A program made the translations under genes and the position numbers. Shown here piece after piece: positions 32,106 to 56,679 of a stretch of DNA of 64,000 nucleotides (position 1 is its first letter; each line of letters starts with the position of its first letter). A model generated the notes under the pieces. That model did not search any database. It was not told the DNA's origin and was given only the letters and a program-made list of their open reading frames with translations. The stretch is from Micromonospora sicca (GTDB taxonomy: Bacteria > Actinomycetota > Actinomycetes > Mycobacteriales > Micromonosporaceae), in contig NZ_QGKS01000258.1 in NCBI RefSeq assembly GCF_003172935.1, forward strand, positions 1 through 64,000, read 5' to 3'.

Positions 32106-33332
32106 TCAATTGGCGTCTTTCCCTTGATCAGCAGATCGGTCTTCATTTGTACAGTCCCCCATCGTTTGGTGGATCGGCCCGTCCAGCGTGGTCAGCCTGC
32201 TTCCGCTGCCACCCCACCGGCCGGCGATGATCTCAGCGGCGATGCTGACCGCGGTCTCCTCCGGCGTGCGGGCGCCCAGATCCAGGCCCAGCGGGGAGGC
32301 GAGCCGCGCCAACTCGTCCTCGGTCAGCCCGACCGCGCGTAGGCGGGCCAGCCGGTCGTTGTGGGTGCGTCGGGATCCCATGGCGCCGATGTAGGCGAGT
32401 GGCAGCCGCAGCGCCACCTCCAGCACCGGTACGTCGAACTTCGGGTCGTGGGTCAGCACGCAGACCACCGTCCGTTCGTCCACCCGGCCGGCTTCGACCT
32501 CCGCCCGCAGGTAGTTGTGGGGCCAGCCGACCACGACTTCGTGCGCCTCGGGGAAGCGGCGTCTGGTGGCAAAGACCGGCCGGGCGTCGCAGACCGTGAC
32601 CCGGTAGCCGAGGAAGGTGCCGATCCGGGAGACCGCCGCGGCGAAGTCGATCGCGCCAAAGACGATCATCCTGGGCGGCATCGCGTGGGTGGACACGAAC
32701 AGCAGGAGTTCATCCCCGCGACGCTGCCCGTCGTACCCGTAGCGCAGCATGCCGGTGCGGCCGGTCGCCAGCAGGCCGCGGGCGTCGTCGGTCGCCGCTG
32801 CGTCCAGCCGATCGCTGCCGAGTGAGCCGGCGGTGCGGTCGCCCCAGACGACGAGTCGCCGCCCGAGCCGGCCGGCGGGATCACTTTCGCCGCCGTCTCC
32901 GCCGGGGTCGCCGTCTCTGCTGGCGCCGCCATCAACTCCGGCGGACACGCAGGTGACCACCGCGACCGGGATGCCCGCCCGGATCGCCCCGGCTACCTCG
33001 CCGAACTCCGGGAAGCCAGCTGGGTCGATGCGCTCCACGTACACGTCGAGGATCCCGCCGCAGGTCAGCCCGACGGCAAACGCGTCTCCGTCGCTCACCC
33101 CATAGCGCTCCAGCGCCGGCACCCCGGCCTCCATGACCTCCTGAGCCACCTCGTAAACCGCGCCCTCCACGCAGCCACCCGAGACGCTGCCCACCGCGGT
33201 GCCGTCCGGGCCAACCAGCATGGTGGCGCCCGCCGGGCGTGGCGCGGAATGCCATGTCGCCACGACAGTGGCAAGGCCGACCGGCTTCCCGGCCTTCCAC
33301 CAGCGGTCCAGCTCATCCAGTACTTCACGCAT
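32106..33332 (-). CDS. xdhC: XdhC/CoxI-family molybdenum-enzyme maturation protein
   Basis: A 408-residue protein with two parts: an N-terminal XdhC_CoxI domain (VGLATVVATWHSAPRPAGATMLV, GSVSGGCVEGAVYEVA) and a C-terminal Rossmann domain (PRMIVFGAIDFAAAVSRIGTFLGYRVTVCDARPVFATRRRF, VCVLTHDPKFDVPVLEVAL, YIGAMGSRRTHNDR). Such proteins bind and sulfurate the molybdenum cofactor and insert it into a specific hydroxylase. Between the domains lies a Gly/Asp-rich linker (about 140-165). The cognate enzyme is very likely the hydroxylase at 48.2-51.9 kb. It is divergent from the first binding-protein gene across a TGTCC-N8-GGACG site, so both are probably under the same regulator. Confidence 0.88.
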   Translation of the reverse strand: MREVLDELDRWWKAGKPVGLATVVATWHSAPRPAGATMLVGPDGTAVGSVSGGCVEGAVYEVAQEVMEAGVPALERYGVSDGDAFAVGLTCGGILDVYVERIDPAGFPEFGEVAGAIRAGIPVAVVTCVSAGVDGGASRDGDPGGDGGESDPAGRLGRRLVVWGDRTAGSLGSDRLDAAATDDARGLLATGRTGMLRYGYDGQRRGDELLLFVSTHAMPPRMIVFGAIDFAAAVSRIGTFLGYRVTVCDARPVFATRRRFPEAHEVVVGWPHNYLRAEVEAGRVDERTVVCVLTHDPKFDVPVLEVALRLPLAYIGAMGSRRTHNDRLARLRAVGLTEDELARLASPLGLDLGARTPEETAVSIAAEIIAGRWGGSGSRLTTLDGPIHQTMGDCTNEDRSADQGKDAN

Positions 33333-33399
33333 ACTCGATCACCCAACAGCTGTCACGGTCCGGTGAACCGTGCTTGACGTCACGGAAGTCCAACCTTAC

Positions 33400-33417
33400 T
33401 GTCCTCTATACCGGACG
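33400..33417. promoter_or_regulatory. Operator site A, TGTCC-N8-GGACG
   Basis: TGTCCTCTATACCGGACG, a near-palindrome 68 bp before xdhC (minus) and 36 bp before the first binding-protein gene (plus). Same layout as sites at 43846, 52546 and 53784. The central TATA suggests overlap with a -10 element. Confidence 0.6.
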
Positions 33418-33453
33418 TCACGTCTCAGCCTGAGGGCATCTAGGGAGGACCCA

Positions 33454-34410
33454 ATGCGTGTCCGCAAGGGCCTGATTGCATCACTCGCCCTCGTCGCACT
33501 AGGGGCAACAGCCTGCGGATCGAACTCCGGCAAGGGGTCCTCCGACTCCTCGGGACAGGTCAAAATGCGCATCGCTGGCAACACCAATGCGGCGGCCCTG
33601 CCGGTCTGGGTGGGGATTGAGCGCGGCTACTTCAAGGACTGCGGGGTCGACGCCAAGTACACCCTGGTCCAGAACATCACCACGCTGCCGGCGGCGCTCG
33701 GCAAGTCCTTCGACATGGCGCTCACCGTTCCGCCACTGCTCATCAGCGCCGCCGCCCAGGGGCTGCCCGTGGTCGAGGCGGCCGGGGCGACCCTGAACTC
33801 GCGGGAGAACCCGCAGACCTTCCTGGTCGCCAAGGAGGGCTCGGGCATCAACACGGTGGCCGACCTGCACGGGAAGAAGCTCGGCGTCCAGACGATCACC
33901 GGCAGCACGCACCTCGGCACCAAGCTGTGGCTCAAGCGCGCCGGCGTCCCCTACGACAGCGTGCAGATCGTCCAGGTCGACGGGCCCGCCATGGCCGACC
34001 AGCTGCGCTCCGGCCGCGTCGATGCGATGGAGACTCTCGCGCCGTTCTCGACCAGCGTCCTGAAGTACGGCAAGAGCATCGCCGACCCGCAGGCCGCGGT
34101 CGCGCCGACGGTCTCCGGCATCTTCTGGGCGGCGGATAAGAACTGGGCGTCCAGCCAGAGCAAGGCCATCAGCTGCTTCCAACAGGGCCTCAAGAAGGCC
34201 GCCGACTTCATCGGCAGCAACACGGACGAGGCCAAGCAGGTCCTGAAGCAGCAGACCAAGCTGCCCGACGACATCGTGAAGGACACGGACCTGCCGACCT
34301 ACACGGCAGAGGTCCGGCCGGACGACCTGAAGCTCTGGGAGGACGCCATGAAGGAGGTCGGCGGCTTCAAGGGCGACGTCGACGTCAAGAACCTCGTCCT
34401 CGCCGGCTGA
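33454..34410 (+). CDS. NitT/TauT-type ABC substrate-binding lipoprotein 1
   Basis: A 318-residue extracytoplasmic binding protein. Signal peptide with lipobox LGATAC (Cys21), then AGNTNAAALPVWVGIERGYFKDCGVDAKY, the NMT1/SsuA-like N-lobe. SVQIVQVDGPAMADQLRSGRVDAMETLAPF is nearly shared with the second binding protein at 53884, so the two are paralogues. No permease is encoded next to it; the matching permeases and ATPase are at 41.3-43.7 kb. GGGAGGA precedes the ATG at 33454. Family members bind nitrate, sulfonates, thiamine precursors or aromatic acids, so the ligand is open; a carboxylated heteroaromatic fits the neighbours. Confidence 0.87.
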   Translation: MRVRKGLIASLALVALGATACGSNSGKGSSDSSGQVKMRIAGNTNAAALPVWVGIERGYFKDCGVDAKYTLVQNITTLPAALGKSFDMALTVPPLLISAAAQGLPVVEAAGATLNSRENPQTFLVAKEGSGINTVADLHGKKLGVQTITGSTHLGTKLWLKRAGVPYDSVQIVQVDGPAMADQLRSGRVDAMETLAPFSTSVLKYGKSIADPQAAVAPTVSGIFWAADKNWASSQSKAISCFQQGLKKAADFIGSNTDEAKQVLKQQTKLPDDIVKDTDLPTYTAEVRPDDLKLWEDAMKEVGGFKGDVDVKNLVLAG

Positions 34411-34457
34411 GAAGTACGAAAACCGTGAGTACGCGGACGGAAGGAGTGAGCGGGGCG

Positions 34458-35612
34458 ATGTCGACGGTGCCGGCCGTCCTCCGGGCGGTCGACCTCCCCG
34501 GCGCTCCTTCCGGGCCGCTCGCGGGGCTCCGGTTCGTCGTCAAGGATGTCATCGACGTGGCTGGCATCCCGACGACGGCCGGCAGCCCCGCATGGGCGTC
34601 CTCGCACCCGACGCCCCACGAGTCCGCGCCAGTCGTCGACACCCTGCTCGCCGCGGGCGCGTCGCTGGTCGGCAAGGCCATCAGCGACGAGCTTGCGTTC
34701 AGCCTCAACGGCACCAACCCGCACTACGGCACCCCCCGCAATCCGGCCGCCGTCGGCCGCATCCCCGGCGGCTCGTCCTCCGGCTCGGCGTCCGCGGTGG
34801 CCGCCGGCGAGTGCGACTTCGCGCTCGGTACGGACACCGGCGGATCCGTCCGGATACCGGCCTCCTACTGCGGCGTGTTCGGCTTCCGACCCAGTTGGGG
34901 CCGGATCCCGGTGGCCGGGGTCACCGCCCTCGCCCCGTCTTTCGACACGGTCGGCTGGTTGGCGAGCGACGCGCGCACGATGCTGCGCGTCGGCCAGGTG
35001 CTCCTCGCGCCGCCACCGGCTGAACCGCCCCGCCCGCCGGTCTTCGTGCCCCTCGTCGAGGGCCTGGAGATCGCCGACGACGGGATCGCCGACGTCCTGC
35101 GCGCCACGCTGCGGTCACGCTTCCCCGGCCGGGTGGCCCCCGATCGGCGCCTCGGCATCGACGTGGCCCAGTGGGCCCAGATCCGGGGCGTGATACAGAG
35201 CTACGAGGCCTGGCAGCTGCACGGCGGCTGGGCACAGCAGCACGCGGACGAGTTGGGCACCGGCGTCGGCGCCCGGCTGCTGAACTGCGCGCAGACCACG
35301 CGGGCCGACTACGACCGGGCCTGCGCCGACCGGGACGCCATCGCCGCCCTGCTCGGCGGCGCCGTCGAACCCGGAGAGGTGCTGTGCCTGCCGGCAGCGC
35401 CGGGCCCGGCGCCCTCCCTCTCGGCGCCCCTCGAGGAGCTGGACCGGCAACGCGTACGGCTCTTCCGGCTCATGGCTCCGGCCGGCCTCTGGGGCGCCCC
35501 GCAGCTGTCCGTGCCGGCATGCACCGCCGGAACGCTGCCGGTCGGGCTGGGGCTGATCGCCCGCCGCGGCGACGACCTCTCGCTGCTTTCACTGTGGAAC
35601 GACACCCCCTAA
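34458..35612 (+). CDS. Amidase signature family hydrolase
   Basis: A 384-residue amidase. The Ser-cisSer-Lys triad is visible: Lys in FVVKDVIDVAGIPTTAGSPAW (about 33), GGSSSGSASAVAAGECDFALGTDTGGSVRIPASYCG with the cis-Ser and the nucleophile Ser (about 110-135). The C-terminal part is short, as in small amidases such as AtzF/indoleacetamide-type enzymes. It would hydrolyse a linear or cyclic amide of the catabolic route. Start choice is uncertain: ATG 34458 has GGAAGGAG 11-12 bases upstream, and GTG codons at 34425 and 34446 are in frame. It follows the binding-protein gene directly and begins a run of seven co-oriented genes ending at 41146. Confidence 0.85.
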   Translation: MSTVPAVLRAVDLPGAPSGPLAGLRFVVKDVIDVAGIPTTAGSPAWASSHPTPHESAPVVDTLLAAGASLVGKAISDELAFSLNGTNPHYGTPRNPAAVGRIPGGSSSGSASAVAAGECDFALGTDTGGSVRIPASYCGVFGFRPSWGRIPVAGVTALAPSFDTVGWLASDARTMLRVGQVLLAPPPAEPPRPPVFVPLVEGLEIADDGIADVLRATLRSRFPGRVAPDRRLGIDVAQWAQIRGVIQSYEAWQLHGGWAQQHADELGTGVGARLLNCAQTTRADYDRACADRDAIAALLGGAVEPGEVLCLPAAPGPAPSLSAPLEELDRQRVRLFRLMAPAGLWGAPQLSVPACTAGTLPVGLGLIARRGDDLSLLSLWNDTP

Positions 35613-35630
35613 CAACTGGAGACCTTGGCC

Positions 35631-36452
35631 ATGCGCGCCATCGACGTCCACGTCCACCTGCACACGACCGAGGCCGACACCGCCCGCAAGGACGCGCAGC
35701 AGGTCTTCGGATCGAGCGGCAGCTCCGCCGACCTATTGGAGTACTACACCAGCCGCGACATGGGCGCAGTCATCTTCGACGTGGACAAGGAGACCACCAC
35801 CGGGCAGCGGATCGACAACGGCGCGATCGCCGAGCTCGCGGCGAAGTCGGGCGGCCGGCTGATCGGGTTCGCCTCGGTTGACCCGAACAAGGGCGCGGCC
35901 GCGCTCGAGGAGCTCGAGCGGTGCGCCGCGCTCGGCCTTCGCGGCCTGAAGCTCCAGCCGATCACCCAGCAGTTCCACCTGGCCGACCGGCGGTTCTACC
36001 CGCTCTGGGAGTTCTGCCAGGCGCACAACTGGCCGCTGCTGGTGCACACCGGTACCACCGGCATCGGCGCCGGCTCCCCGGGTGGCCGCGGGCTGAAGCT
36101 CAAGTACGGGCACCCGCTGCCCGACGTGGACGACGTCGCCGCCGACTTCCCGGATCTGAACATCATCGCCGCCCACTTCGCCTGGCCGTGGCACCTGGAC
36201 CTGCTCGCCATCGCCCGGCACAAGGCGAACGTCTGGGTGGACCTCTCGGGCTGGGCACCCAAGTACATCCCGGACGAGGTCGTCAAGTACCTGAACAGCG
36301 TCATCTCCGACCGGGTGCTCTTCGGGTCAGACTACCCGTGGCTCAAGCCGGACCGGTGGATGGCCGAGTTCCAACACCTGCCGGTCAAGGACGAGGTACG
36401 CGAGAAGGTGCTCCTCACCAACGCCCAGCGCCTGCTTGGGTGGGACGCGTGA
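35631..36452 (+). CDS. Amidohydrolase-2 family (ACMSD-like) metal hydrolase or decarboxylase
   Basis: A 273-residue TIM-barrel protein. It opens with IDVHVHLH, the metal-binding H-x-H, has LKLQPITQQFHLADRRFYPLWEFC, LLVHTGTTG and IIAAHFAWPWH with further His ligands, and ends LFGSDYPWLKP with the conserved Asp. This branch holds non-hydrolytic decarboxylases (aminocarboxymuconate semialdehyde, resorcylate, 3,6-dihydroxypicolinate) as well as lactone hydrolases. Here a decarboxylase or hydrolase of a ring-cleavage or ring-hydroxylated product is likely. TGGAGA lies about eight bases before the ATG at 35631; a TTG two codons earlier is less likely. The stop overlaps the next start (GTGA). Confidence 0.83.
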   Translation: MRAIDVHVHLHTTEADTARKDAQQVFGSSGSSADLLEYYTSRDMGAVIFDVDKETTTGQRIDNGAIAELAAKSGGRLIGFASVDPNKGAAALEELERCAALGLRGLKLQPITQQFHLADRRFYPLWEFCQAHNWPLLVHTGTTGIGAGSPGGRGLKLKYGHPLPDVDDVAADFPDLNIIAAHFAWPWHLDLLAIARHKANVWVDLSGWAPKYIPDEVVKYLNSVISDRVLFGSDYPWLKPDRWMAEFQHLPVKDEVREKVLLTNAQRLLGWDA

Positions 36453-37138
36453 CCGCCGTGGCCGACGACCGGACGATGCTGAGCAAGGTCATGTCGGTCG
36501 AGGAGGCCCTCGCCCCCATCGCCGATCACTCCACCGTCATGGTCGGCGGGTTCGGCGGGGCCGGCACCCCGGTGGCGCTCCGCGAGGCCCTGGCGCTGCG
36601 GCAGCTGCGCCACCTGACGATGGTCGCCAACAACAGCGACTTCGGCAGCTTCCTCTACCCCGGCGGCCTCAAGCGGGTCATCTGCTCCTTCCCCGTCGGC
36701 CACACCGCTCCTCAGGTACTCGCGGCCGTCGAAGCCGGCGACGTCAAGCTGCAACTGGTGCCCCAGGGCACCCTCGCAGAGCGGATCCGGGCGGCCGGTG
36801 CCGGGCTCGGCGGGGTACTCACCCCCACCGGACTGGACATGGAGTTCGGCGCCGCGTACCAGGAGATGGAGTTCAACGGCCAGCGGTGGCTGCTCGTCCC
36901 GGCGCTCCCCGCCGACGCGGCGCTGATCAAGGGCGCGATCGCCGACACCCGGGGCAACATCGTCTGCCGCTACGCCGGCATCAACTTCAACCCGGTCATG
37001 GCCATGGCCGCGCGGTACACGGTGGCTCAGGTCGAGCGCGTGCTACCGGTCGGCGAGATCGATCCGCAGGCCGTGACGGTCCCCAGCGTGCTCGTTGACG
37101 CGGTCGTCGAGCTACCCACGAAGACGGCGGAGGGCTGA
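36449..37138 (+). CDS. 3-oxoacid CoA transferase, subunit A
   Basis: A 229-residue alpha subunit of a family I CoA transferase. VMVGGFGGAGTPVALREAL is the glycine-rich CoA loop, and GTLAERIRAAGAGLGGVLTPTG and GAIADTRGNIVCRYAGINFNPVMAMAA are standard. Closest in style to 3-oxoadipate and succinyl-CoA:3-ketoacid transferases (PcaI/ScoA). GTG start inside the previous stop. Works only with the beta subunit encoded one base further on. Typical donors are succinyl-CoA or acetyl-CoA. Confidence 0.9.
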   Translation: MTAVADDRTMLSKVMSVEEALAPIADHSTVMVGGFGGAGTPVALREALALRQLRHLTMVANNSDFGSFLYPGGLKRVICSFPVGHTAPQVLAAVEAGDVKLQLVPQGTLAERIRAAGAGLGGVLTPTGLDMEFGAAYQEMEFNGQRWLLVPALPADAALIKGAIADTRGNIVCRYAGINFNPVMAMAARYTVAQVERVLPVGEIDPQAVTVPSVLVDAVVELPTKTAEG

Positions 37139-37139
37139 C

Positions 37140-37811
37140 ATGCCGCAGGAACGCATCGACATCGCTCGCCGGGTGGCCGCCGACATCGGACGGGGCTGGT
37201 CGGTCAACCTCGGCATCGGCATCCCCACCCTGTGCGCGCAGTTCATCGCCCACCCCGAGACGCTGGTGCAGAGCGAGAACGGCATCCTCGGCATGGGCGG
37301 GCCGCCACCGCCCGGACAGGAGGACCCGGACCTCGTCGACGCCGGTAAGCGGCCGGCCACGATCGTGCCGGGCGGGTGCTTCTTCGACTCGCTGATGTCC
37401 TTCGGCCTCATCCGCGGCGGCCACCTCGACCTGGCCGTGCTGGGCGCGTTCCAGGTCGGCGCCAACAGCGACCTCGCCAACTGGCGGCTGCCCCAAAAGA
37501 GCACCGGCGCACTCGGCGGCGCGGCCGACCTCGCGGCCGGTGCCCGCCGCGTGTGGGTGGCGATGGAGCACGTCGGCAAGGGCGGCGAGCCGCGGCTGCT
37601 GCGGACGTGCAGCTACCCGCTGACCGCCCGCGGCGTGGTCGGGCGCGTCTACACCGACCTCGCCGTCCTAGAGCCGAGAAGCGACGGGCGCTTCGAGCTG
37701 ATCGAGCTGGCCGAGGGTGTCAGCTTCGACGAGGTGCAGGAGCGCACCGACGCCGAGCTGGTGCCGGCGACCGCTGCACAGACCCCGAGGGGAGAACACG
37801 CACGTGCCTGA
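37140..37811 (+). CDS. 3-oxoacid CoA transferase, subunit B
   Basis: A 223-residue beta subunit. It starts MPQERIDIARRVAADIG, has VNLGIGIPTLCAQFI and the catalytic Glu in LVQSENGILGMGGPPP, which forms the glutamyl-CoA thioester (about residue 46). PGGCFFDSLMSFGLIRGGHLDLAVLGAFQV is diagnostic for PcaJ/ScoB. The ATG at 37140 lies one base after the subunit A stop. With subunit A it would activate or release the acid product of the pathway as a CoA ester. No separate acyl-CoA ligase is encoded in the block, so this may be the only CoA-activation step. Confidence 0.9.
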   Translation: MPQERIDIARRVAADIGRGWSVNLGIGIPTLCAQFIAHPETLVQSENGILGMGGPPPPGQEDPDLVDAGKRPATIVPGGCFFDSLMSFGLIRGGHLDLAVLGAFQVGANSDLANWRLPQKSTGALGGAADLAAGARRVWVAMEHVGKGGEPRLLRTCSYPLTARGVVGRVYTDLAVLEPRSDGRFELIELAEGVSFDEVQERTDAELVPATAAQTPRGEHARA

Positions 37812-38343
37812 CATGCCTCCCGAGCCGCCGACCATCTCGACGGCGGAGCTGACCCAGATCGTCCGCGCCTTCGCCGACTCCGACCTGCGGGAGCTGCGCC
37901 TGGTGGTCGGCGACGTCGACCTGCTGGTGTCCCGCAACGAGCACATCGACGGCGCGGCCCCGGCCCGTCCGGCGGCCCCGGCTCCGGCGGCCGCCAGCGC
38001 TCCGGCTCCGGCTCCGACGGCGGCCCCAACGGCCTCCGCGCCGTCAGCTGCCTCTGCTATGGACAGCAGCACGCCGGCGGTCGACCGCACCGGCCTGATC
38101 CCGGTCCACTCCCCCTCCGTGGGGGTGTTCTACCGCCGCCCGACCCCGGAAAAACCGCCCTATGTGGAGGTCGGCTCCGCGGTCGCGGTCGGCGACCCGG
38201 TGGGGACGCTCGAGGTGATGAAGATGTTCACCACCGTACCGAGCGAGGTGGCCGGCACGGTCGCCGAGATCTGCGTCGAGGACGCGACGCTCGTCGAGTA
38301 CCAGCAGGTGATCATGTACCTGTCCCCGGCTGCGGGCGCCTGA
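37804..38343 (+). CDS. accB: Biotin carboxyl carrier protein
   Basis: A 179-residue carrier. The biotin-accepting lysine is Lys140 in GTLEVMKMFTTVPSEVAGTV; IPVHSPSVGVFYRRPTPEKPPYVEVGS is the usual AccB-type lead-in. Between the N-terminal helix (STAELTQIVRAFADSDLRELRL) and the biotinyl domain runs a Pro/Ala linker (about 52-88). It overlaps the subunit B gene by eight bases: GTG 37804 has GGGGAG nine bases upstream, while the ATG at 37813 does not. It carries carboxyl groups between the carboxylase and carboxyltransferase encoded directly after it. Confidence 0.88.
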   Translation: MPDMPPEPPTISTAELTQIVRAFADSDLRELRLVVGDVDLLVSRNEHIDGAAPARPAAPAPAAASAPAPAPTAAPTASAPSAASAMDSSTPAVDRTGLIPVHSPSVGVFYRRPTPEKPPYVEVGSAVAVGDPVGTLEVMKMFTTVPSEVAGTVAEICVEDATLVEYQQVIMYLSPAAGA

Positions 38344-38348
38344 CCGGC

Positions 38349-39703
<1,355 letters not shown>

Positions 39704-39707
<4 letters not shown>

Positions 39708-41146
39708 GCAAGCGCGCGGGACTCATCGACACCACACTGCGGGACGGCAACCAGTCGCTGTGGGCCACCCGCATGACGACGGACATGATGCTGCCGATCC
39801 TGCCCGCCATGGATCGGGCCGGATACCACTCGCTGGAGTTCATGGCGACGGTCAACATGGACGTCTGCGTCCGGTTCCTGGGTGAGAACCCGTGGGAGCG
39901 GATCCGGCGGGTGCGCCAGCACGTCCGGCACACGCCGCTGCGGATGATGGGCATGGCCTACTTCTTCAGCATCTCCCGCGTGTACCCGGACGAGGTCGTG
40001 GAGCTGTTCAACAAGACAGCCGCGCGGGCCGGGATCGAACACATGTGGATCACCGCCGGGATGAACGACGTACGCACGACGGAGGTCGGGATCCGGGCGG
40101 CCCGGGAGGCCGGCTGCCGCACCGAGGGCTCCATCCAGTTCACCATCAGCCCCATGCACACCGACGAGTTCTTCGCCAACGCGGCCGCCGAGTTCATCGC
40201 GCTGGGCGTCGACGCGCTGATCGTGAAGGACGCCGGTGGCCTCCTCACGCCGGAGCGGGCCGCCACGCTGTTCCCCGCGCTGCGGCAGGCGTGCGGCGAC
40301 GTCCCGATCTACTGCCACTCGCACTGCATCACCGGCATGGGGCCGGCGGCCAACATCGCCGCCATCCAACACGGGGCATCGGCGATCTGGACCTGCACGG
40401 CCCCGCTGGCCAACGGCCCGTCGCTGCCGGCCGACGATGCGATGACGCGGAGCCTGCGCTGGCAGGGGTATGAGACCGGCGTCGACGAGGAGGCGACCGC
40501 CGAGATCGCCGCGTACTTCCGCGACCTGGCGGCCCGCCTGGGCAAGCCGACCGGCACGATCGCCGAGTACGACCCCGGCTACTACGTACACCAGATGCCG
40601 GGCGGCATGCTCGCCAACTTCCGCGAACAGCTCGCCCAGGTGGGCATGAGCGACCGGCTCGCGGCGGTGATGGAGGAGATGCCGCGCGTCCGCGCCGAGT
40701 TCGGGTACCCGAACGTGCAGACCCCGTTCTCCCAGTTCATCGGTACCCAGGCGCTGCTCAACGTGGTGCACGGCCGCTACGAGATCGTCCCGGACGAGAT
40801 CCGCAACTACCTCCTCGGCTACTGGGGCCGCACCCCGGCGCCGGTCGACCAGAACCTGCTCGACCGGGTCGCGCAGGGCGAGGAGCCGGTGACCGAGCGG
40901 CCCAGCGCGCTGGCCGAGCCGATCCTCGACCGGGTACGCAAGCAGCACGGCCCCTTCCACACCGACGAGGACCTGCTCCTGGCGACCCTGTTCATGCCCG
41001 AGGTACTGGAGGAGATGCGGGCCTCGCAGCGGAAGAGGGCGCGTAACAACCTCTCCATGGCCGACGCGGGGTCGATCGCTCAGCTGGTCCGCGAGGCGAG
41101 CAAGATCCCCGGCGTGAAGCACGTCCGCCTGACCGTGCCGCGCTGA
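39704..41146 (+). CDS. Pyruvate-carboxylase/oxaloacetate-decarboxylase-type carboxyltransferase subunit
   Basis: A 480-residue HMGL-like TIM barrel with a PYC_OADA C-terminal domain. LIDTTLRDGNQSLWATRMTTDMM is the metal-binding start; the carboxylated Lys lies in ALIVKDAGGLLTPE (about 175), and the metal-binding histidines in YCHSHCITGMGPAANIAAIQHGAS. The tail (GYYVHQMPGGMLANFREQL, RAEFGYPNVQTPFSQFIGTQALLNV) matches OadA, transcarboxylase 5S and PycB, whose acceptor is a 2-oxo acid such as pyruvate. LRDGNQSLWATRM where most have LRDAHQSL-A-T-R-M is a mild variant. No membrane subunit of a decarboxylase pump is nearby, so it probably works in the carboxylation direction. Confidence 0.88.
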
Positions 41147-43863: not shown

Positions 43864-43919
43864 AACGTTCCTCTCCCCTGGAAAGAGCTAAGGGCTTCGA
43901 ACCCATGTCAGGAGGTCGC

Positions 43920-51028: not shown

Positions 51029-51858
51029 CGGGCTTCCTCCCATGCGCGCCGGACGGCGTCCTCGGTTGCGACGAGGCCGAGCTTCCGCTTGTAGTCGGCG
51101 CTGCCGCGGACGTCGGGAATCGGGTCGAGCTCCGGCTCGACGGCGGCCGTGGCCGCGGCGACCGCCGCGTCGACGCCGCCACCGTCGAGCGGGACCTCGA
51201 CGTACCGGGGCACGTGGGCCAGCGCGCCGAGCCCCAGCCGGAGCGTCCGTCGCTCCGCGTCTACCTGCGCGGCCACGGACGCGGCGGGCCAGTCATTCTC
51301 CCCGAGGCTGCTCATTTTCACGAAGGTCGACGAGTTCCCGGCCGGAGCGGCCGGGATGTGCAGCGCGGTGATCAGCTCCCCCGGCTCCACGGCGGTGACC
51401 TGGAAGTCGACGAAGAAGTCGCGGATGGGCACGGTACGCGTACCGCGGACCGAGGTCAGCTCGACGCGGGCACCGAGGACGAGCAGCGCCGTCGGCGGGT
51501 CGAGCCGGTAGTCGCCGTGGGCGATGTTGCCGCCGACGCTCGCGGTGTTGCGGACCCGCGGGTTGGCGACGTGGCCGTAGGTCTGCGCGGCCAGCGGCAC
51601 CCGGCGACGGACGACCTCGCTGGTCTCCATCCGCCGGAGCGTGGTCATCGGCCCCACCCGAAGGCCCTCGGCCGTCTCCTCAATCTCGGCGAGTCCGGGA
51701 ACCCGGGAGAGGTCGACGAGGTTACCGGCGAACAGCACCCCCTGCTTGATGAGGATCTGGATCGCCGTACCGCCGCCGTAGACCATCGTCTCCTCGAGGG
51801 TGTCGAGAAGCTCGCACGCCTCGGCCAGCGAGGTCGGCTGGTGCAGTGGCGGCTTCAT
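51025..51858 (-). CDS. Molybdenum hydroxylase, FAD-binding medium subunit
   Basis: A 277-residue CoxM-type subunit. ETMVYGGGTAIQILIKQGVLFAGNLVDLSRVPGL is the first FAD loop and RNTASVGGNIAHGDYRLDPPTALLVLGARVEL the second; the C-terminal CO_deh_flav_C domain follows (VKMSSLGENDWPAASVAAQV). It hands electrons from the iron-sulfur clusters to NAD or a quinone. Gene order medium-large-small, all overlapping by ATGA, is the classical hydroxylase arrangement. Confidence 0.9.
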   Translation of the reverse strand: MKPPLHQPTSLAEACELLDTLEETMVYGGGTAIQILIKQGVLFAGNLVDLSRVPGLAEIEETAEGLRVGPMTTLRRMETSEVVRRRVPLAAQTYGHVANPRVRNTASVGGNIAHGDYRLDPPTALLVLGARVELTSVRGTRTVPIRDFFVDFQVTAVEPGELITALHIPAAPAGNSSTFVKMSSLGENDWPAASVAAQVDAERRTLRLGLGALAHVPRYVEVPLDGGGVDAAVAAATAAVEPELDPIPDVRGSADYKRKLGLVATEDAVRRAWEEAR

Positions 51859-52663: not shown

Positions 52664-52933
52664 ATGAATTCCAACCACCCAGAGCCGGACCTGGCGGTGA
52701 ACGACCAGACGGGCGAGGCGAGCCCCGGCGTGATCCGATCGGTCGAGGAGCACCCGAGCGGCGACATCCCGGCCTCACCGACGCCAGAACCGCCGGAGAC
52801 CGCCGAGGAGACCCAGGCGGCCCGGCGTCCTCCGCCGGGCGCTAAGCCCGCTCAGCCGCGGTCGGACCCGGCGGCCATCTCGCCGCCGAGCAACGTGTTC
52901 GCGTACAGGTCGCGCGAAAGCCCGGCGAAGTGA
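52664..52933 (+). CDS. Small Pro/Glu-rich ORF, doubtful
   Basis: An open frame of 89 codons, MNSNHPEPDLAVNDQTGEAS onward, rich in Pro, Glu and Ala, with no domain. It ends 82 bp inside the convergent isochorismatase-like gene and lacks a good ribosome-binding site. It is the only candidate gene in the 330-bp gap between the coxG and isochorismatase-like genes. Probably not real, but the amino-acid content is not that of a simple antisense shadow over its first 190 bases. Confidence 0.2.
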   Translation: MNSNHPEPDLAVNDQTGEASPGVIRSVEEHPSGDIPASPTPEPPETAEETQAARRPPPGAKPAQPRSDPAAISPPSNVFAYRSRESPAK

Positions 52934-53652
52934 GCCACCGTGTCGGCGAGCGACCGCACGTCCGCGTACTTCTGGTGCAGGTCGAACAGCGACATCGCGT
53001 GCGACGCCTCGCCGCGGTCGAACGTGCACTCCTCGACCACGACCACCCGGTAGTTGAGCGAGAAGGCGTCGGTGACCGTCGCCCGTACGCACCCGCTCGT
53101 GGTGGTACCGCAAACGACCAGCGTGTCGGCCCCGAGGTCCACGAGGTACGAGGCGAGCATCGTGCCGAAGAAGGCGCTGGGCCGCCCCTTGCGCACCACG
53201 ATCTCGTGCGACAGCGGGGCCAGGGCGTCGACGATGTCGTTGCCACGCGGATTGGCCTGGTGCTCGCGGGACCGCGGACTCTTGTCGTTCCAGCGGCCCC
53301 GGTCGAAGAAGGTCGACCCCTCGCGGAAGCCGCTACTGAAAAAGACCGGCATGGCCGCCGCGCGCGCCGCCGCGAGCAGGGTCTTCGTCCGCTCCACAGC
53401 ATCCCACGCCTGCGGCCCGCAACTGCTGGGCCAGCGGTCGACCGACTCCCGCAGCGGCAGCCGGTACTCACCGCAGAAGTTGTAGTTGATGTCGACGACG
53501 AGAAGAACCGGGCGGGCGCCGAAGCCGACCGAGCCGCCGAAGCCCGAGCGGTCGAAGATGTCCCGGTCGCTGTCGGTCAGGAAGCGATCCCACGGGCGCA
53601 CGCGAAGCCCCTTCGTCTCACCCACGCGTCCACGAAAGACCGCGCGCCGCAC
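52852..53652 (-). CDS. Isochorismatase-fold amide hydrolase 1
   Basis: A 266-residue cysteine hydrolase of the isochorismatase/N-carbamoylsarcosine amidase family. Triad: Asp in VLLVVDINYNFCG (about 50), Lys in IVVRKGRPSAFFGTML (about 152), Cys in VCGTTTSGCVRATVTDAF (about 187) with the cis-peptide before it. The sequence RSREHQANPRGNDIVDALAP is like maleamate and carbamoyl-type amidases. It is clearly paralogous to the protein at 54851. The start is uncertain: GTG 53652 or GTG 53625, neither with a strong site. It is divergent from the second binding-protein gene. Likely role: release of ammonia from an amide of the pathway. Confidence 0.84.
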   Translation of the reverse strand: MRRAVFRGRVGETKGLRVRPWDRFLTDSDRDIFDRSGFGGSVGFGARPVLLVVDINYNFCGEYRLPLRESVDRWPSSCGPQAWDAVERTKTLLAAARAAAMPVFFSSGFREGSTFFDRGRWNDKSPRSREHQANPRGNDIVDALAPLSHEIVVRKGRPSAFFGTMLASYLVDLGADTLVVCGTTTSGCVRATVTDAFSLNYRVVVVEECTFDRGEASHAMSLFDLHQKYADVRSLADTVAHFAGLSRDLYANTLLGGEMAAGSDRG

Positions 53653-53783: not shown

Positions 53784-53801
53784 TGTCCTGCAAAATGGAC
53801 A
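53784..53801. promoter_or_regulatory. Operator site D, TGTCC-N8-GGACA
   Basis: TGTCCTGCAAAATGGACA, 83 bp before the second binding-protein gene (plus) and 132 bp before the isochorismatase-like gene (minus). Both half-sites match site C exactly. Confidence 0.6.
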
Positions 53802-53883
53802 CCATGCCTCGCAGAGAGGTCAATTAGCGAGCTGCACCCCTCCCACCCGAGGCGTCCGCCGCACACGATCGAAAGAGGGACCC

Positions 53884-54846
53884 GTGCGATCGAAGAGCTG
53901 GTTCTTGGCGGCGGCGGCCGCGTTCACCCTGATGGCCGCGGGTTGCGGAGGATCGACCGACGGCGGCTCCGGCAGCAGCGGGAGCAAGACCACGCTGCGG
54001 GTTGCCAGCAATTCGAACAGCAGCGCTCTGCCGCTGTGGGTCGCGGTCGAGAAGAACCTGTGCGACAAGCAGAACCTGAAGATTAACTTCACCAAGATCG
54101 AGAACGTCGGCACGCTGCCGCCGGCCCTCGGCAAGAACTTCGACATCATCTTCACCACGCCGGTCCAGGCCATCACCGCGACCGCGCAGGGCATCCCCGT
54201 CACGGAGATCGCCGGCTCCTCGACCGACACGAAGGACAACGCGAACAGCTACCTGTTCGTGCAGGACAAGTCCCCGATCCGCAACGTTAGCGACCTCGCC
54301 GGCAAGAAGATCGGAGTGCTCACCGAGGTCGGCACCCTGCACTACGCCACCCTGCGGCTGCTCAAGCAAGCGGGCGTCGACCCGAGCTCCGTTCAAATCG
54401 TCCAGGTGGACGGCCCGAGCCAGGCCGACCAGCTGGCGGCCGGACGGGTCGACGCGGTGGAGACCGTACGGCCGTTCAACGCGGCCATCAAGGCGAAGGG
54501 CGGCCGGAACATCGGCACCCCGTTCTCGTCCCTGGGCGACGAGATCAGCGTGATCTGGTGGGGCGCCAACCGCCAGTGGGCCGAGTCCCACTCCAGCGCC
54601 GTGCAGGCGTACCAGAGGTGCCTCCAGGACGCCACCACGTACATCAAGGAGCACGACGCGGAGGCGCGCCAGGTCCTGCAGAAGTACACGAAGCTGCCGG
54701 AGGAGGTCGCCAAGTCGTTCGAGCTGCCGCTCTACGACCCGTCCGTGCGCCCCGACGACGTCAAGCGGTGGCTGGACGCGATGAAAGAGCTGGGCCTGTT
54801 CAACGGCGACGTGGACGTCAGCAAGCTCGCGTACCAGGCGAAGTGA
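53884..54846 (+). CDS. NitT/TauT-type ABC substrate-binding lipoprotein 2
   Basis: A 320-residue binding protein with signal peptide and lipobox LMAAGC (Cys21). SNSNSSALPLWVAVEKNLCDKQNLKI, LPPALGKNFDIIFTTPVQAITATAQGIPV and SVQIVQVDGPSQADQLAAGRVDAVETVRPF match the first binding protein at 33454 over its whole length. GTG start at 53884 with GAAAGAGGGACCC upstream. It has no permease of its own and probably shares the 41.3-43.7 kb transporter, giving one channel two ligand specificities. Confidence 0.87.
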   Translation: MRSKSWFLAAAAAFTLMAAGCGGSTDGGSGSSGSKTTLRVASNSNSSALPLWVAVEKNLCDKQNLKINFTKIENVGTLPPALGKNFDIIFTTPVQAITATAQGIPVTEIAGSSTDTKDNANSYLFVQDKSPIRNVSDLAGKKIGVLTEVGTLHYATLRLLKQAGVDPSSVQIVQVDGPSQADQLAAGRVDAVETVRPFNAAIKAKGGRNIGTPFSSLGDEISVIWWGANRQWAESHSSAVQAYQRCLQDATTYIKEHDAEARQVLQKYTKLPEEVAKSFELPLYDPSVRPDDVKRWLDAMKELGLFNGDVDVSKLAYQAK

Positions 54847-54850
54847 GCCG

Positions 54851-55510
54851 ATGATGCACCTCGACTACACGAGGGCCGAGGCCCTCTACGCGAGCCAGGA
54901 CCTCGGGCAGGAGATCGGACTGGGCGAGCGTCCTGCGCTGCTCGTGGTGGATTTCCAGCTCGGCTTCACCGACCCGGCCAGCCCCATCGGCGGTGACATG
55001 TCCGCGGCGATCGAGGCCACCGTCGATCTTCTTGCCGCGGCACGGACCGCGGACGTGCCGGTCTGGTACACGGTGGTGGGCTACCGGCCGGACCTCGCCG
55101 ACGCCGGGGTGTGGCCGCTCAAGTATCCCCGGCTGGATGCCCTCCGGCGGAACACGCCAGCCGTGCAGGTCGACCCGCGGGTGGCCCCGTCGGATGCGGA
55201 GGTCGTCATCCTCAAGCAGTACGCGTCCGCGTTCTTCGGCACGTCCCTGCACTCGATGCTGGCGGCCGCGCGCGTCGACTCGCTGATCGTCACCGGCTGC
55301 ACCACCAGCGGCTGCGTACGGGCGACCGTCGTCGACGGGATGCAGTACGGCTACCGCGTCGTCGTGGCAGAGGACTGCTGTGCCGACCGGGACGAGGCCC
55401 CACACCTGGCCAACCTCTTCGACATGCGGACCAAGTACGCCGACGTGGCCCCCTCCGGGCAAATCATCAAGTCACTGGAACTCCGCAGCGGGCAACCGTC
55501 CCGTACGTAG
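54851..55510 (+). CDS. Isochorismatase-fold amide hydrolase 2
   Basis: A 219-residue cysteine hydrolase. Asp in LLVVDFQLGFTDP (about 36), Lys in VILKQYASAFFGTSL (about 122), Cys in VTGCTTSGCVRATVVDGM (about 156). RVVVAEDCCADRDEAPHLANLFDMRTKYADV parallels the product of the gene at 52852, so the two hydrolases and the two adjacent binding proteins look like products of one duplication. It follows the binding-protein gene by four bases. ATG at 54851 or 54854. N-carbamoylsarcosine-amidase-like in sequence character. Confidence 0.86.
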   Translation: MMHLDYTRAEALYASQDLGQEIGLGERPALLVVDFQLGFTDPASPIGGDMSAAIEATVDLLAAARTADVPVWYTVVGYRPDLADAGVWPLKYPRLDALRRNTPAVQVDPRVAPSDAEVVILKQYASAFFGTSLHSMLAAARVDSLIVTGCTTSGCVRATVVDGMQYGYRVVVAEDCCADRDEAPHLANLFDMRTKYADVAPSGQIIKSLELRSGQPSRT

Positions 55511-55562
55511 CAGGGGGAAGGACCAGCGCCGCTGCCCTTGCCGAAGACCTCGTCCATGCATT

Positions 55563-55985
55563 TCACGCGGCATGCCGGTACTCGTTGAGGATGCCGCCGA
55601 GGCGTTGGCGTCTTCGTATATCGAGGCGAGCCAACTTGTCCGGATCGGCGACCGGCGGAGGCAACGGGTACAGCGGGCGCGTTCGCAAATGCCCTGGTGC
55701 GGGCGGTGCCCGTTGTAGAACTGTTCGAAGTCGCGCAGGGCGTGGAGCAGGTGCCGCTGGTTCCAGATCAAGCTGCGGTCCAGCAGTTCGCGCCGCCCCG
55801 TCTGCACCCACCGTTCCATAACCGAGTTCATTCGCGGCATCCGGACGCCGCTCAGGACGACGTCCATGCCCGCGTCTGGGAGGACCGCGTCGAGCAACTC
55901 GGGGAGCTTCCCGCCCCCACAGGAACCGCGCCCGGCAACCGGCGGCGTCCTCGATGTCCATGACAAGGCTGTTCGCCGTCTGCAC
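55563..55985 (-). pseudogene. Remnant of an rve-type transposase, frameshifted
   Basis: Pieces of an integrase-core transposase C-terminus can be read in two frames: NSLVMDIEDAAGCRARFLWG, then MDVVLSGVRMPRMNSVMERWVQTGRRELLDRSLIWNQRHLLHALRDFEQFYNGHRPHQGI, then PLYPLPPPVADPDKLARLDIRRRQRLGGILNEYRHAA. At least two shifts separate them and the N-terminal half is missing. No inverted repeats found. It marks an old insertion at the right end of block 2, just after the second hydrolase gene. Confidence 0.75.
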
Positions 55986-56097
55986 AGTCAGAGGCAGTTA
56001 GGAGTGGTTCGGCGACGTGCGGCCATGCCCCACTATGGCGCGGCGCGCCGAACCGGCTACCTCCCGGTTCAGCGGCCGTGGCGATAGCGTTGCCGGT

Positions 56098-56679
56098 ATG
56101 CCGATGCGCCTCGCCGGGTTGGTCCTCGCGGCCGGCGCTGGCCGCCGTTTCGGCATGCCCAAGGCGCTGGTCCGCCACCACGGGCGGCTGCTGGTCGAGC
56201 GCGCGATCGAGGTAGCCGTCGCGGCGGGCTGCGCGCCCGTGGTGGTGGTGCTCGGGGCAGCGGCGGCCGACATCCGGGCGGTCGCCGAGCTAGGCGCAGC
56301 GGTTGTCGTCGACAATCCCGACTGGGAGAGCGGTATGGGCTCGTCGCTGCGGGCCGGGTTGGCGGCACTCGCCGCAACCGATGCCAGCGCCGCGGTCGTC
56401 CTGCTGGTCGACATGCCGGGCGTGACGGCGGCAGCGGCCCGACGCGTCGGCTCGCTCGCCGACGCGGACGCGCTCGCCATGGCCGGCTATGGCGAGCGGC
56501 GAGGCCATCCCGTGCTGCTCGGCCGCTCGCACTGGACCGGCATCGCCCGGACGGCCATCGGCGACGTCGGTGCCCGGCCCTACCTACGACGGCACGCAGC
56601 CGAGGTGCAGGTCGTGTCGTGCGTCGACGTCGCCGACGATGGCGACATCGACATACCCGCGGACATCCGCGAAGCCTGA
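56098..56679 (+). CDS. MobA-like NTP transferase (molybdenum cofactor cytidylyl/guanylyltransferase type)
   Basis: A 193-residue nucleotidyltransferase. AGLVLAAGAGRRFGMPKALVRHHGRLLVERA is the nucleotide-binding signature, DNPDWESGMGSSLRAGLAAL and VVLLVDMPGVTAAAARRV hold the metal-binding Asp, and GYGERRGHPVLLGRSHW follows. This is the MocA/CoxF-like group that adds CMP to molybdopterin for xanthine-oxidase-family enzymes. Its place at the end of a block with a molybdenum hydroxylase and XdhC fits cofactor supply. Start ATG 56098 (MPMRLAG); a second ATG lies two codons on. It is separated from the block by the transposase remnant. Confidence 0.83.
   Translation: MPMRLAGLVLAAGAGRRFGMPKALVRHHGRLLVERAIEVAVAAGCAPVVVVLGAAAADIRAVAELGAAVVVDNPDWESGMGSSLRAGLAALAATDASAAVVLLVDMPGVTAAAARRVGSLADADALAMAGYGERRGHPVLLGRSHWTGIARTAIGDVGARPYLRRHAAEVQVVSCVDVADDGDIDIPADIREA

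What the first reader, a model, noticed from the sequence alone, without database searches (positions are those of the whole stretch)
32106..56679. Candidate undescribed pathway for a carboxylated N-heteroaromatic compound
Seen together: UbiD decarboxylase, three-subunit molybdenum hydroxylase with CoxG, XdhC and MobA-like support, amidase, ACMSD-like amidohydrolase, two isochorismatase-fold amidases, an enol-lactonase/deformylase-like hydrolase, a PcaIJ-like CoA transferase, a three-part biotin carboxylase, and NitT-type uptake plus MFS. Parts recall nicotinate, picolinate, furoate and pyrrole-carboxylate routes, but no ring-cleavage dioxygenase, UbiX or acyl-CoA ligase is visible, so the combination matches none of these. 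Hydrolytic opening after Mo-dependent hydroxylation, then amide hydrolysis and CoA transfer, would be consistent.
Basis: partly seen in the sequence, partly recalled or inferred. Interest (0 to 1): 0.82.

Follow-up and report, generated by a model that had tools for sequence, protein, structure and literature searches.

The report
Mobile two-module heteroaromatic catabolic island
A block of about 24 genes shared by two Micromonospora strains looks like a transferable pathway that breaks down a still unidentified ring compound: one half is a route found in several soil bacteria (decarboxylate, hydroxylate, hydrolyse), and the other half appears to carboxylate and cut a methyl ketone.

Summary
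The genes are real and placed as described.

Module A is a tightly coupled operon, CoxG-FAD-Mo-FeS-PcaD-like hydrolase-UbiD, with IclR, NitT-type uptake and isochorismatase-fold amidases. Of 66 related loci, the hydrolase accompanies UbiD in 16 of 17 with UbiD at 55% identity or more, and in 2 of the other 49. A UbiX-like gene, absent from the window, lies in 11 of those 17.

Module B (binding protein, amidase, amidohydrolase, CoA transferase, BCCP, BC, carboxyltransferase) was seen only in the window and Micromonospora sp. U21 among what I searched. The amidohydrolase groups with CouO/HpeF-type beta-ketoacyl-CoA hydrolases rather than ACMSD-like decarboxylases. The carboxyltransferase lacks the LLRGQN motif of oxaloacetate decarboxylases and is a deep lineage of its own. 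I read module B as methyl-ketone carboxylation, CoA transfer, and cleavage to an acid plus acetyl-CoA.

The island is 96.5% identical in U21 at another place; its UbiD occurs in 2 of 160 Micromonospora genomes, so it was probably acquired horizontally. Substrate, module order, and N or O in the ring remain unproven.

The parts
32106..33332 (-). XdhC-type Mo-enzyme maturation protein
   Evidence: PF02625/PF13478; 93% in U21
33454..34410 (+). NitT/NMT1-type substrate-binding protein 1, first gene of the module B operon
   Evidence: PF09084; start
34458..35612 (+). amidase (PRK08310 family)
   Evidence: NF006169 above its cut-off; plasmid relatives 40-47%
35625..36452 (+). amidohydrolase-superfamily protein, CouO/HpeF-like beta-ketoacyl-CoA hydrolase (activity inferred)
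   Evidence: PF04909; 38-42% over the whole match to proteins in hpe-like and coumarate/ferulate-like clusters, 41-46% over local segments; contexts
36476..37138 (+). 3-oxoacid CoA-transferase subunit A (PcaI/ScoA family)
   Evidence: TIGR02429 above cut-off
37140..37811 (+). 3-oxoacid CoA-transferase subunit B (PcaJ/ScoB family)
   Evidence: TIGR02428 above cut-off
37804..38343 (+). biotin carboxyl carrier protein
   Evidence: PF00364; TIGR00531 just under cut-off
38349..39707 (+). biotin carboxylase
   Evidence: NF006367 above cut-off
39704..41146 (+). carboxyltransferase of the PycB/OadA fold without the LLRGQN motif; proposed methyl-ketone carboxyltransferase
   Evidence: PF00682+PF02436; NF006761 'pyruvate carboxylase subunit B' domain model above cut-off, TIGR01108 oadA under it; motif and tree
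41254..42084 (-). NitT-type ABC permease 2
   Evidence: PF00528, start
42084..42863 (-). NitT-type ABC permease 1
   Evidence: PF00528, start
42860..43654 (-). ABC ATPase
   Evidence: PF00005; start
43905..44729 (+). IclR-family regulator
   Evidence: PF01614/PF09339
44726..45937 (+). MFS transporter
   Evidence: PF07690
45998..47443 (-). UbiD-family prFMN decarboxylase
   Evidence: PF01977/PF20695/PF20696; best PDB match 7pda; R169/E273/E278 invariant in 18 rows
47440..48237 (-). PcaD-like alpha/beta hydrolase
   Evidence: TIGR02427 E 7.3e-50, under cut-off; best PDB 2xua; S94/D213/H241 invariant in 20 rows
48234..48695 (-). [2Fe-2S] subunit of the Mo-hydroxylase
   Evidence: PF01799/PF00111
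48692..51028 (-). Mo-cofactor subunit of the hydroxylase
   Evidence: PF02738/PF20256/PF01315; best PDB 1rm6; E735/R375 invariant in 23 rows
51025..51858 (-). FAD subunit of the Mo-hydroxylase
   Evidence: PF00941/PF03450
51855..52520 (-). CoxG/SRPBCC protein
   Evidence: PF06240, start
52852..53601 (-). isochorismatase-fold amidohydrolase 1 (N-carbamoylsarcosine amidohydrolase-like)
   Evidence: PF00857; PDB 26st, 3ot4
53884..54846 (+). NitT/NMT1-type substrate-binding protein 2
   Evidence: PF09084; start
54851..55510 (+). isochorismatase-fold amidohydrolase 2
   Evidence: PF00857; PDB 26st, 4l07, 3ot4
55472..55966 (-). transposase remnant, also in U21 (type assigned by eye from the translation)
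   Evidence: translation; 81% over 111 residues in U21
56098..56679 (+). MobA-like nucleotidyltransferase (Mo-cofactor maturation, inferred)
   Evidence: PF12804; NboR and MocA family matches under cut-off
30718..32064 (.). IS element: 21-base terminal inverted repeats (CTGCAAGGTAGGGATATGACC) around a DDE_Tnp_1 gene at the left border; absent at that place in U21

Best explanation
A horizontally acquired catabolic island for a heteroaromatic compound, made of two modules. Module A: a heteroaromatic carboxylate is imported, decarboxylated by prFMN-dependent UbiD, hydroxylated next to the hetero-atom by the three-subunit Mo enzyme, and the lactam or lactone tautomer of that product is opened by the PcaD-like hydrolase; isochorismatase-fold amidases release nitrogen. 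Module B: a methyl ketone R-CO-CH3 is carboxylated without prior phosphorylation by the three-part biotin enzyme to R-CO-CH2-COO-, activated by the 3-oxoacid CoA transferase, and split by the CouO/HpeF-like hydrolase to R-COO- and acetyl-CoA. The likelier order is B feeding A (an acetyl-heteroarene becomes the carboxylate that UbiD takes), because B is the rare add-on, carries its own binding protein, and its last enzyme makes aryl carboxylates in its known kin. Shown here: gene content, kept catalytic residues, conservation of A, kinship of B's hydrolase, an altered carboxyltransferase site, mobility. Inferred: every reaction, the order, the substrate class.
For: Module A: of the 66 loci, 17 have UbiD at 55% identity or more; the PcaD-like hydrolase is in 16 of these 17 and a Mo subunit in 15; in the other 49 the figures are 2 and 10 (the 49 are shorter, median 16.5 against 21.4 kb, and the 17 include U21 itself). 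Order CoxG-FAD-Mo-FeS-hydrolase-UbiD, with 4-base overlaps in the window. L026, L028 and L029 keep UbiD and hydrolase but have another Mo enzyme (30-32%), and R. erythropolis BG43 has CoxG-FAD-Mo(64%)-FeS-hydrolase with no UbiD match in the 30 kb fetched, which fits three steps of one route. UbiX-like genes in 11 of the 17. Module B: L105 (Rhodococcus sp. JS3073) holds homologues of HpeH, HpeI, BCCP, BC, CT, HpeD, a CoA ligase and the amidohydrolase (44%) in a row, the gene set of the hpe pathway in PMC9618137; CouO is an amidohydrolase-superfamily enzyme yielding an aromatic acid (PMC4737184). CT: LLRGQN is in 3 of 22 rows, all annotated as or beside oxaloacetate decarboxylase (L112-L114), and in none of the other 19; the arginine column is not Arg in 10 of 22 rows, among them the window and the hpe-like L088, L097, L101 and L105. 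CT relatives (39%) lie beside a beta-keto acid cleavage enzyme (L089) and beside 3-oxoacid CoA transferase and thiolase (L094). Mobility.
Against: No enzyme has been assayed. CT scores above the cut-off of the domain model named pyruvate carboxylase subunit B (435.5 against 402). Nine rows from other clusters without LLRGQN still keep the arginine, so its loss is no general mark of ketone enzymes. CT is a deep separate lineage and does not group with the hpe-like rows. HpeCBA did not act on unphosphorylated ketones (PMC9618137), yet no kinase or phosphatase match is in the window. Module B has no second distant occurrence as a unit. The best plasmid relative of the amidohydrolase (51%, Thermomicrobium) lies in a neighbourhood that tells nothing. 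The amidase has no role that follows from the model. Chemistry after the hydrolase is not encoded. 10 of the 17 loci show no isochorismatase match, and no RidA match was found in them.
Confidence: 0.42

Rival explanations
1. Module B acts after module A. A methyl-substituted five-membered ring acid is decarboxylated and hydroxylated; the enol-lactone or enol-lactam is opened by the PcaD-like hydrolase to a 4-oxo acid such as 4-oxopentanoate; the ketone is carboxylated to 3-oxoadipate, activated by the PcaIJ-like CoA transferase and cleaved to succinate and acetyl-CoA.
For: The hydrolase is nearest to 3-oxoadipate enol-lactonase; the CoA transferase falls in the PcaI/ScoA and PcaJ/ScoB families; the IclR regulator's best family is PcaR/PcaU, though far under its cut-off. 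A hydroxylated furan or pyrrole is a tautomer of such an enol-lactone or lactam (chemical reasoning).
Against: Module A occurs without module B in the fetched stretch of 16 of 17 loci, so B is not needed for the usual product. Known kin of the amidohydrolase act on aryl substrates. The CoA transferase families do not separate 3-oxoadipate from acetoacetate.
Confidence: 0.25
2. The two modules are unrelated pathways that share an island and a transporter: A for a heteroaromatic carboxylate, B for a small ketone such as acetone or butanone.
For: B was not found with A elsewhere. A related carboxyltransferase cluster in Cnuibacter has 3-oxoacid CoA transferase and thiolase, one in Caballeronia lies near acetoacetate decarboxylase; in both the arginine is kept.
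Against: B carries a CouO-like amidohydrolase rather than a thiolase, and an NMT1-type binding protein that a volatile ketone would not need; both modules are in one block shared with U21.
Confidence: 0.22
3. The substrate is an oxygen heterocycle (furan type) and no ring nitrogen is involved; the amidases serve amide side groups. This cuts across the order question, so its odds do not add to the others.
For: UbiD, Mo hydroxylase and lactone hydrolysis are steps of the furandicarboxylate/furoate route (recalled). 10 of 17 loci with the core show no isochorismatase match, some of them being short.
Against: Isochorismatase-fold amidases accompany 7 of 17 loci; RidA, an enamine/imine deaminase (role recalled), is in the proteobacterial relatives L107 and L109.
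Confidence: 0.3
4. One reading: Mo-dependent hydroxylation, hydrolytic opening, amide hydrolysis, then CoA transfer and a carboxylation, with an ACMSD-like decarboxylase.
For: All these enzyme classes are present.
Against: The amidohydrolase's full-length kin in hpe- and cou-like clusters score 149-178 bits, while solved decarboxylases match only in part at 31 bits or less and ACMSD is not in the list. The full set was seen in two strains only.
Confidence: 0.1

Closest known systems
Hpe pathway of Rhodococcus rhodochrous GD02 (HpeHI, HpeCBA, HpeD, HpeE, HpeF; PMC9618137, passages seen)
   Same: Three-part biotin carboxylase with an OadA/PycB-fold carboxyltransferase, a CoA activation step and a CouO-type beta-ketoacyl-CoA hydrolase in one cluster
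   Different: No kinase or phosphatase match in the window; a CoA transferase in place of the ligase; the carboxyltransferase is a separate deep lineage (33-40% to hpe-like rows L088, L097, L101, L105); joined to UbiD and a Mo-hydroxylase. GD02 sequences themselves were not compared
CouO of Rhodococcus jostii RHA1 (PMC4737184, one passage seen)
   Same: Amidohydrolase-superfamily enzyme; the window protein shares a signature with members of cou-like clusters
   Different: CouO itself was not compared here; the cluster members used are 38-46% identical; different neighbourhood
Furandicarboxylate/furoate (Hmf) pathway (recalled)
   Same: UbiD decarboxylase, Mo-hydroxylase, lactone hydrolysis
   Different: No CoA ligase among the ORFs scanned; amidases present; Hmf sequences were not compared
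Nicotinate and picolinate routes (Nic, Pic; recalled)
   Same: Mo-hydroxylase, alpha/beta hydrolase, maleamate-type isochorismatase-fold amidase
   Different: No ring-cleavage dioxygenase or monooxygenase among the ORFs scanned; UbiD present
Pyrrole-2-carboxylate degradation of Rhodococcus/Arthrobacter (recalled)
   Same: Hydroxylated five-membered ring acid opened hydrolytically
   Different: Flavin monooxygenase there, Mo-hydroxylase here

Membership tests
UbiD decarboxylases | UbiD domains with the R-E-E catalytic residues | tested here: met
   PF01977, PF20695, PF20696; R169/E273/E278 invariant in 18 rows; that these are the catalytic residues is recalled
UbiD decarboxylases | prFMN supply by UbiX | tested here: inconclusive
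   None in the window; three PF02441 matches elsewhere in the genome, one about 2.6 kb from the second UbiD, but this family is broad and matched all 14 control genomes; UbiX-like gene in 11 of 17 relatives' loci
Xanthine-dehydrogenase-type Mo-hydroxylases | Three subunits with Mo, FAD and 2Fe-2S domains and the catalytic glutamate | tested here: met
   E735 in a GxGE motif invariant in 23 rows; its role is recalled
4-hydroxybenzoyl-CoA reductase | Equivalog scores | tested here: not met
   TIGR03194 459.8 against 994.55, TIGR03195 98.7 against 404.55, TIGR03193 130 against 257.8, although the closest solved structure is this enzyme
Pyruvate carboxylase subunit B (NF006761, a domain model) | Score above the curated cut-off | tested here: met
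   435.5 against 402
Pyruvate carboxylase / oxaloacetate decarboxylase | LLRGQN motif with the arginine of the alpha-keto acid site (role recalled) | tested here: not met
   Window reads GMAYFF there; LLRGQN in 3 of 22 rows (L112-L114); oadA equivalog 403.8 against 756.5
Hpe/Xcc-type aryl-ketone carboxylases | Carboxyltransferase groups with hpe-like rows | tested here: inconclusive
   Like L088, L097, L101 and L105 it lacks the arginine, and it shares a PLANGxSLP-like motif, but it forms its own deep branch on the other side of the midpoint, where some forks are open
Hpe pathway | HpeHI kinase and HpeD phosphatase | tested here: not met
   No match to the Rhizobium homologues in the 64-kb window at 1e-6; the rest of the genome was not searched
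CouO/HpeF beta-ketoacyl-CoA hydrolases | Full-length similarity and shared signature with members in hpe/cou-like clusters | tested here: met
   activity not testable here
ACMSD-like decarboxylases | Full-length match to solved decarboxylases | tested here: not met
   Only partial matches at 31 bits or less; ACMSD not in the list; best match 3irs is uncharacterised at 91.5 bits
3-oxoacid CoA transferases | TIGR02429 and TIGR02428 above cut-off | tested here: met
   204.5 over 128.5 and 249.5 over 243.55
3-oxoadipate enol-lactonase (PcaD) | Equivalog score | tested here: not met
   TIGR02427 169.7 against 255.85; triad residues present
Nicotinate (Nic) pathway | NicX ring-cleavage dioxygenase | tested here: inconclusive
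   None among the 40 ORFs scanned; the rest of the genome was not searched for it
Furoate (Hmf) pathway | Furoyl-CoA synthetase | tested here: inconclusive
   No AMP-binding enzyme among the 40 ORFs scanned; a CoA transferase could substitute

The most novel reading that the evidence does not exclude
A previously undescribed, oxygenase-free route for acetyl-heteroaromatics: a biotin enzyme carboxylates an unphosphorylated heteroaryl methyl ketone, a CoA transferase and a CouO-type hydrolase turn it into the heteroaryl carboxylate, and UbiD, a Mo-hydroxylase and a PcaD-like hydrolase then remove the carboxyl group and open the ring hydrolytically.
Probability: 0.28. Interest if true: 0.72.

Novelty: new variant of a known kind. 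Interest (0 to 1): 0.55.

Why it matters
If right, it links two chemistries not usually seen together, methyl-ketone carboxylation and hydrolytic opening of a decarboxylated heteroaromatic ring, in one transferable gene set, with a short list of assays. The module A core (UbiD, Mo-hydroxylase and PcaD-like hydrolase), found in Pseudonocardia, Amycolatopsis, Saccharopolyspora, Kibdelosporangium, a Streptomyces and, more distantly, a Paraburkholderia, is a catabolic unit that none of the listed papers appeared to describe (titles and abstract starts seen, open-licence papers only). The carboxyltransferase is a deep branch of biotin enzymes with an altered substrate site, useful for finding new CO2-fixing reactions.

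Tried and rejected
Oxaloacetate decarboxylase/pyruvate carboxylase reading of module B: set aside because LLRGQN is missing and the arginine is lost, although the domain model NF006761 is passed; not excluded by experiment. ACMSD-like role of the amidohydrolase: rejected on kinship. 4-hydroxybenzoyl-CoA reductase reading of the Mo enzyme: rejected on scores. Isonicotinate/citrazinate reading: two plasmid clusters with tricarballylate genes hold a Mo subunit 42% and 37% identical, but no UbiD or hydrolase match, so kept as a hint only. Attempts to name the substrate through literature: searches listed no paper that appeared to describe this combination; 7PDA was found in no paper with UbiD. A sampling of 394 genomes of the class with the Mo subunit gave only the own genome, and of 396 of the phylum with the carboxyltransferase the same; one search scored only 2 and only 4 candidates per genome, at strict limits, so relatives can be missed. 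Finding an empty insertion site through flank searches did not work: the flanks hit repeated families at many places. No structure prediction was run, since folds would not tell substrates apart.

Full report
WHAT IS THERE. The window lies in a genome of 7.88 Mb in 541 contigs. Its genus is inferred to be Micromonospora: the near-identical block is in Micromonospora sp. U21, and the genome search puts the genome holding it in the window's genus. They fall into groups: a plus-strand operon SBP1-amidase-amidohydrolase-CoA transferase A/B-BCCP-BC-carboxyltransferase (33454-41146; gaps of 47, 12, 23, 1 and 5 bases, overlaps of 8 and 4); a minus-strand ABC transporter (43654-41254); IclR-MFS (43905-45937, plus); and a minus-strand operon CoxG-FAD-Mo-FeS-hydrolase-UbiD (52520-45998) in which each gene overlaps the next by four bases. 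Isochorismatase-1, SBP2 and isochorismatase-2 follow (52852-55510), then a transposase remnant and a MobA-like gene. XdhC opens the block.

MOBILITY. The stretch 32070-55872 matches Micromonospora sp. U21 at 96.5% over 23,825 aligned positions, and 55909-56727 at 89%; the rest of the fetched 40 kb of U21 matches the window only in pieces under 130 bases. A 95-base piece at 30615-30709 abuts the block directly in U21, while in the window an IS of 1,347 bases with 21-base terminal inverted repeats sits between, so the IS probably came later. UbiD of this kind is in 2 of 160 genomes of the genus, the own one included, at E 1e-150. The island is therefore rare and probably transferred.

MODULE A IS A CONSERVED CORE. 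One scan of the species-genome collection with a two-row UbiD alignment, by two peptide patterns, gave 66 loci. In the 17 loci with UbiD at 55% identity or more, the PcaD-like hydrolase is present in 16 and a Mo subunit in 15; L016 ends before the place of the hydrolase, L027 is a 9-kb contig, and L071 ends soon after the hydrolase. In the other 49 loci the hydrolase occurs in 2 and a Mo subunit in 10. The comparison is not even: the 49 are shorter (median 16.5 against 21.4 kb) and the 17 include U21 and two loci of one strain (L015, L026). Twelve of the 17 (L014-L025: U21, Pseudonocardia, Amycolatopsis, Saccharopolyspora, Streptomyces, Kibdelosporangium, a Pseudonocardiaceae MAG) have the same Mo enzyme at 68-97%, with CoxG and IclR. 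L026, L028 and L029 keep UbiD (58-59%) and the hydrolase (49-54%) but have a different Mo enzyme (30-32%). UbiX-like genes occur in 11 of the 17; family membership was checked for two of them (PF02441). Rhodococcus erythropolis BG43 plasmid pRLCBG43 has CoxG 53, FAD 57, Mo 64, FeS 67, hydrolase 52 and IclR 48% and no UbiD match in 30 kb; Ancylobacter polymorphus ZM13 has hydrolase 43, CoxG 31, FAD 39, Mo 44 and FeS 47% with RidA; Paraburkholderia caribensis MBA4 has NitT uptake, hydrolase 44, FAD 36, Mo 40, FeS 45%, RidA, XdhC, UbiD 48% and UbiX. That Mo enzyme and hydrolase can stand without UbiD nearby, and that the Mo enzyme can be replaced while UbiD and hydrolase stay, suggests three steps of one route.

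CHEMISTRY OF MODULE A (inferred). UbiD removes a carboxyl group; the Mo enzyme places a hydroxyl group from water next to a hetero-atom; the hydroxylated ring is a tautomer of a lactam or lactone, which suits a PcaD-like hydrolase (3-oxoadipate enol-lactonase model matched under its cut-off; best solved structure 2xua). Residues taken as catalytic are kept in all rows aligned (18 rows for UbiD, 20 for the hydrolase, 23 for the Mo subunit, 7 for isochorismatase-1). Both isochorismatase-fold proteins are nearest to N-carbamoylsarcosine amidohydrolase 26st, with 3ot4/3uao also high, which fits release of ammonia from an amide. RidA in two proteobacterial relatives points the same way. Against nitrogen: 10 of the 17 loci show no isochorismatase match, and RidA queries matched neither the window nor the actinobacterial loci. 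A furan-type substrate is not excluded.

MODULE B. The amidohydrolase was thought ACMSD-like. Solved decarboxylases match it only partly (31 bits or less); the best solved match, 3irs at 91.5 bits, is uncharacterised. Among 72,556 plasmid records 41 match at 1e-20 (30 listed). The listed ones include a protein of a feruloyl-CoA cluster annotated 4-hydroxyphenyl-beta-ketoacyl-CoA hydrolase (L103), one of a coumarate-like cluster with AMP ligase, SDR and MaoC (L104), and ones beside the biotin carboxylase (L088, L097, L105), at 149-178 bits. The best listed match, Thermomicrobium at 51%, is in a neighbourhood that tells nothing; the other listed records were not looked at. The alignment shows a shared signature through the whole protein. 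L105 holds, in a row, homologues of HpeH, HpeI, BCCP, BC, carboxyltransferase, HpeD, a CoA ligase and the amidohydrolase. PMC9618137 (passages) describes HpeHI kinase, HpeCBA biotin carboxylase, HpeD phosphatase, HpeE ligase and HpeF hydrolase (95% to CouO) for acetovanillone; HpeCBA did not act on the unphosphorylated ketones. PMC4737184 (one passage) states that CouO is an amidohydrolase-superfamily enzyme yielding an aromatic acid. The window has carboxylase, CoA transferase and hydrolase, but no kinase or phosphatase match. I infer R-CO-CH3 to R-CO-CH2-COO- to the CoA ester to R-COO- and acetyl-CoA.

THE CARBOXYLTRANSFERASE. By family models it passes the domain model named pyruvate carboxylase subunit B and fails the oadA equivalog. 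In 22 aligned rows LLRGQN is present in the three oxaloacetate decarboxylase rows (L112-L114) and in none of the other 19; the window and U21 read GMAYFF there. The arginine column is Arg in 12 of 22 rows (the three, and nine others such as L081, L087, L094, L099) and another residue in 10: window, U21, L085, L086, L095, and L088, L096, L097, L101, L105, of which L088, L097, L101 and L105 have an HpeD-like gene. That this arginine binds the alpha-keto acid is recalled. In the midpoint-rooted tree the window and U21 form a deep branch on the same side as the oxaloacetate decarboxylases, L100 and L081/L082, not with the hpe-like rows; some forks there are open. So the site is altered, but membership in the hpe-like clade is not shown. 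Relatives lie beside a beta-keto acid cleavage enzyme (L089), 3-oxoacid CoA transferase and thiolase (L094), acetoacetate decarboxylase (L087), and in plasmids of Pseudomonas putida YC-AE1 and Sphingobium yanoikuyae YC-JY1, which is consistent with beta-keto acid chemistry. Of 15 genomes behind core loci, only U21's has this carboxyltransferase; 5 of the other 14 have a match at 1e-60, at 40% or less.

HOW THE MODULES FIT. Either B makes the carboxylate that A uses, or A makes a methyl ketone that B uses (for example 4-oxopentanoate to 3-oxoadipate), or the two are separate. I favour the first (0.42 for the whole model) because A stands without B in the fetched stretch of 16 of 17 loci, B has its own binding protein, and kin of B's last enzyme form aryl carboxylates. 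The second is chemically neat and gets 0.25. The furan rival answers another question and overlaps with these.

COMPARISON AND NOVELTY. Each enzyme class is known. No paper listed appeared to describe the combination (titles and abstract starts seen; only open-licence papers are held). I call it a new variant of a known kind.

Noticed in passing
window 30285-30689 and 62317-62719: A direct repeat of about 400 bases at 88% identity on either side of the island; matches to the same stretch occur in other genomes.
   Followed up: partly
window 30718-32064: IS element with 21-base terminal inverted repeats at the island border, not at that place in U21.
   Followed up: partly
window 58459-59394: Weak DUF4253 match, 25.0 bits, under the cut-off of 27.
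   Followed up: no
window 5136-6266 (-): Aldehyde dehydrogenase-like stretch, 33% to a Rhodococcus aldehyde dehydrogenase, outside the island.
   Followed up: no
L106 12414-17541 (R. erythropolis BG43 pRLCBG43): CoxG-FAD-Mo-FeS-hydrolase cluster 52-67% like the window's, on a plasmid, without a UbiD match.
   Followed up: partly
L108 and L111: Mo-hydroxylase clusters beside tricarballylate genes tcuA/tcuB in Alicycliphilus DP3 and Arthrobacter crystallopoietes; may be isonicotinate/citrazinate routes (inference from recall).
   Followed up: no
L048: UbiD (38%) beside a Mo-hydroxylase set in a contig titled as a Thaumarchaeota MAG.
   Followed up: no
L089 (G162) 5580-10832: Biotin carboxylase with a carboxyltransferase without LLRGQN, a beta-keto acid cleavage enzyme and an amidase in one run of genes, in a genome that also has module A.
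   Followed up: partly
L115 (Aromatoleum aromaticum EbN1 plasmid 2): UbiD and UbiX genes with an ABC transporter and CoA transferases; one UbiD is 42% like the window's.
   Followed up: no
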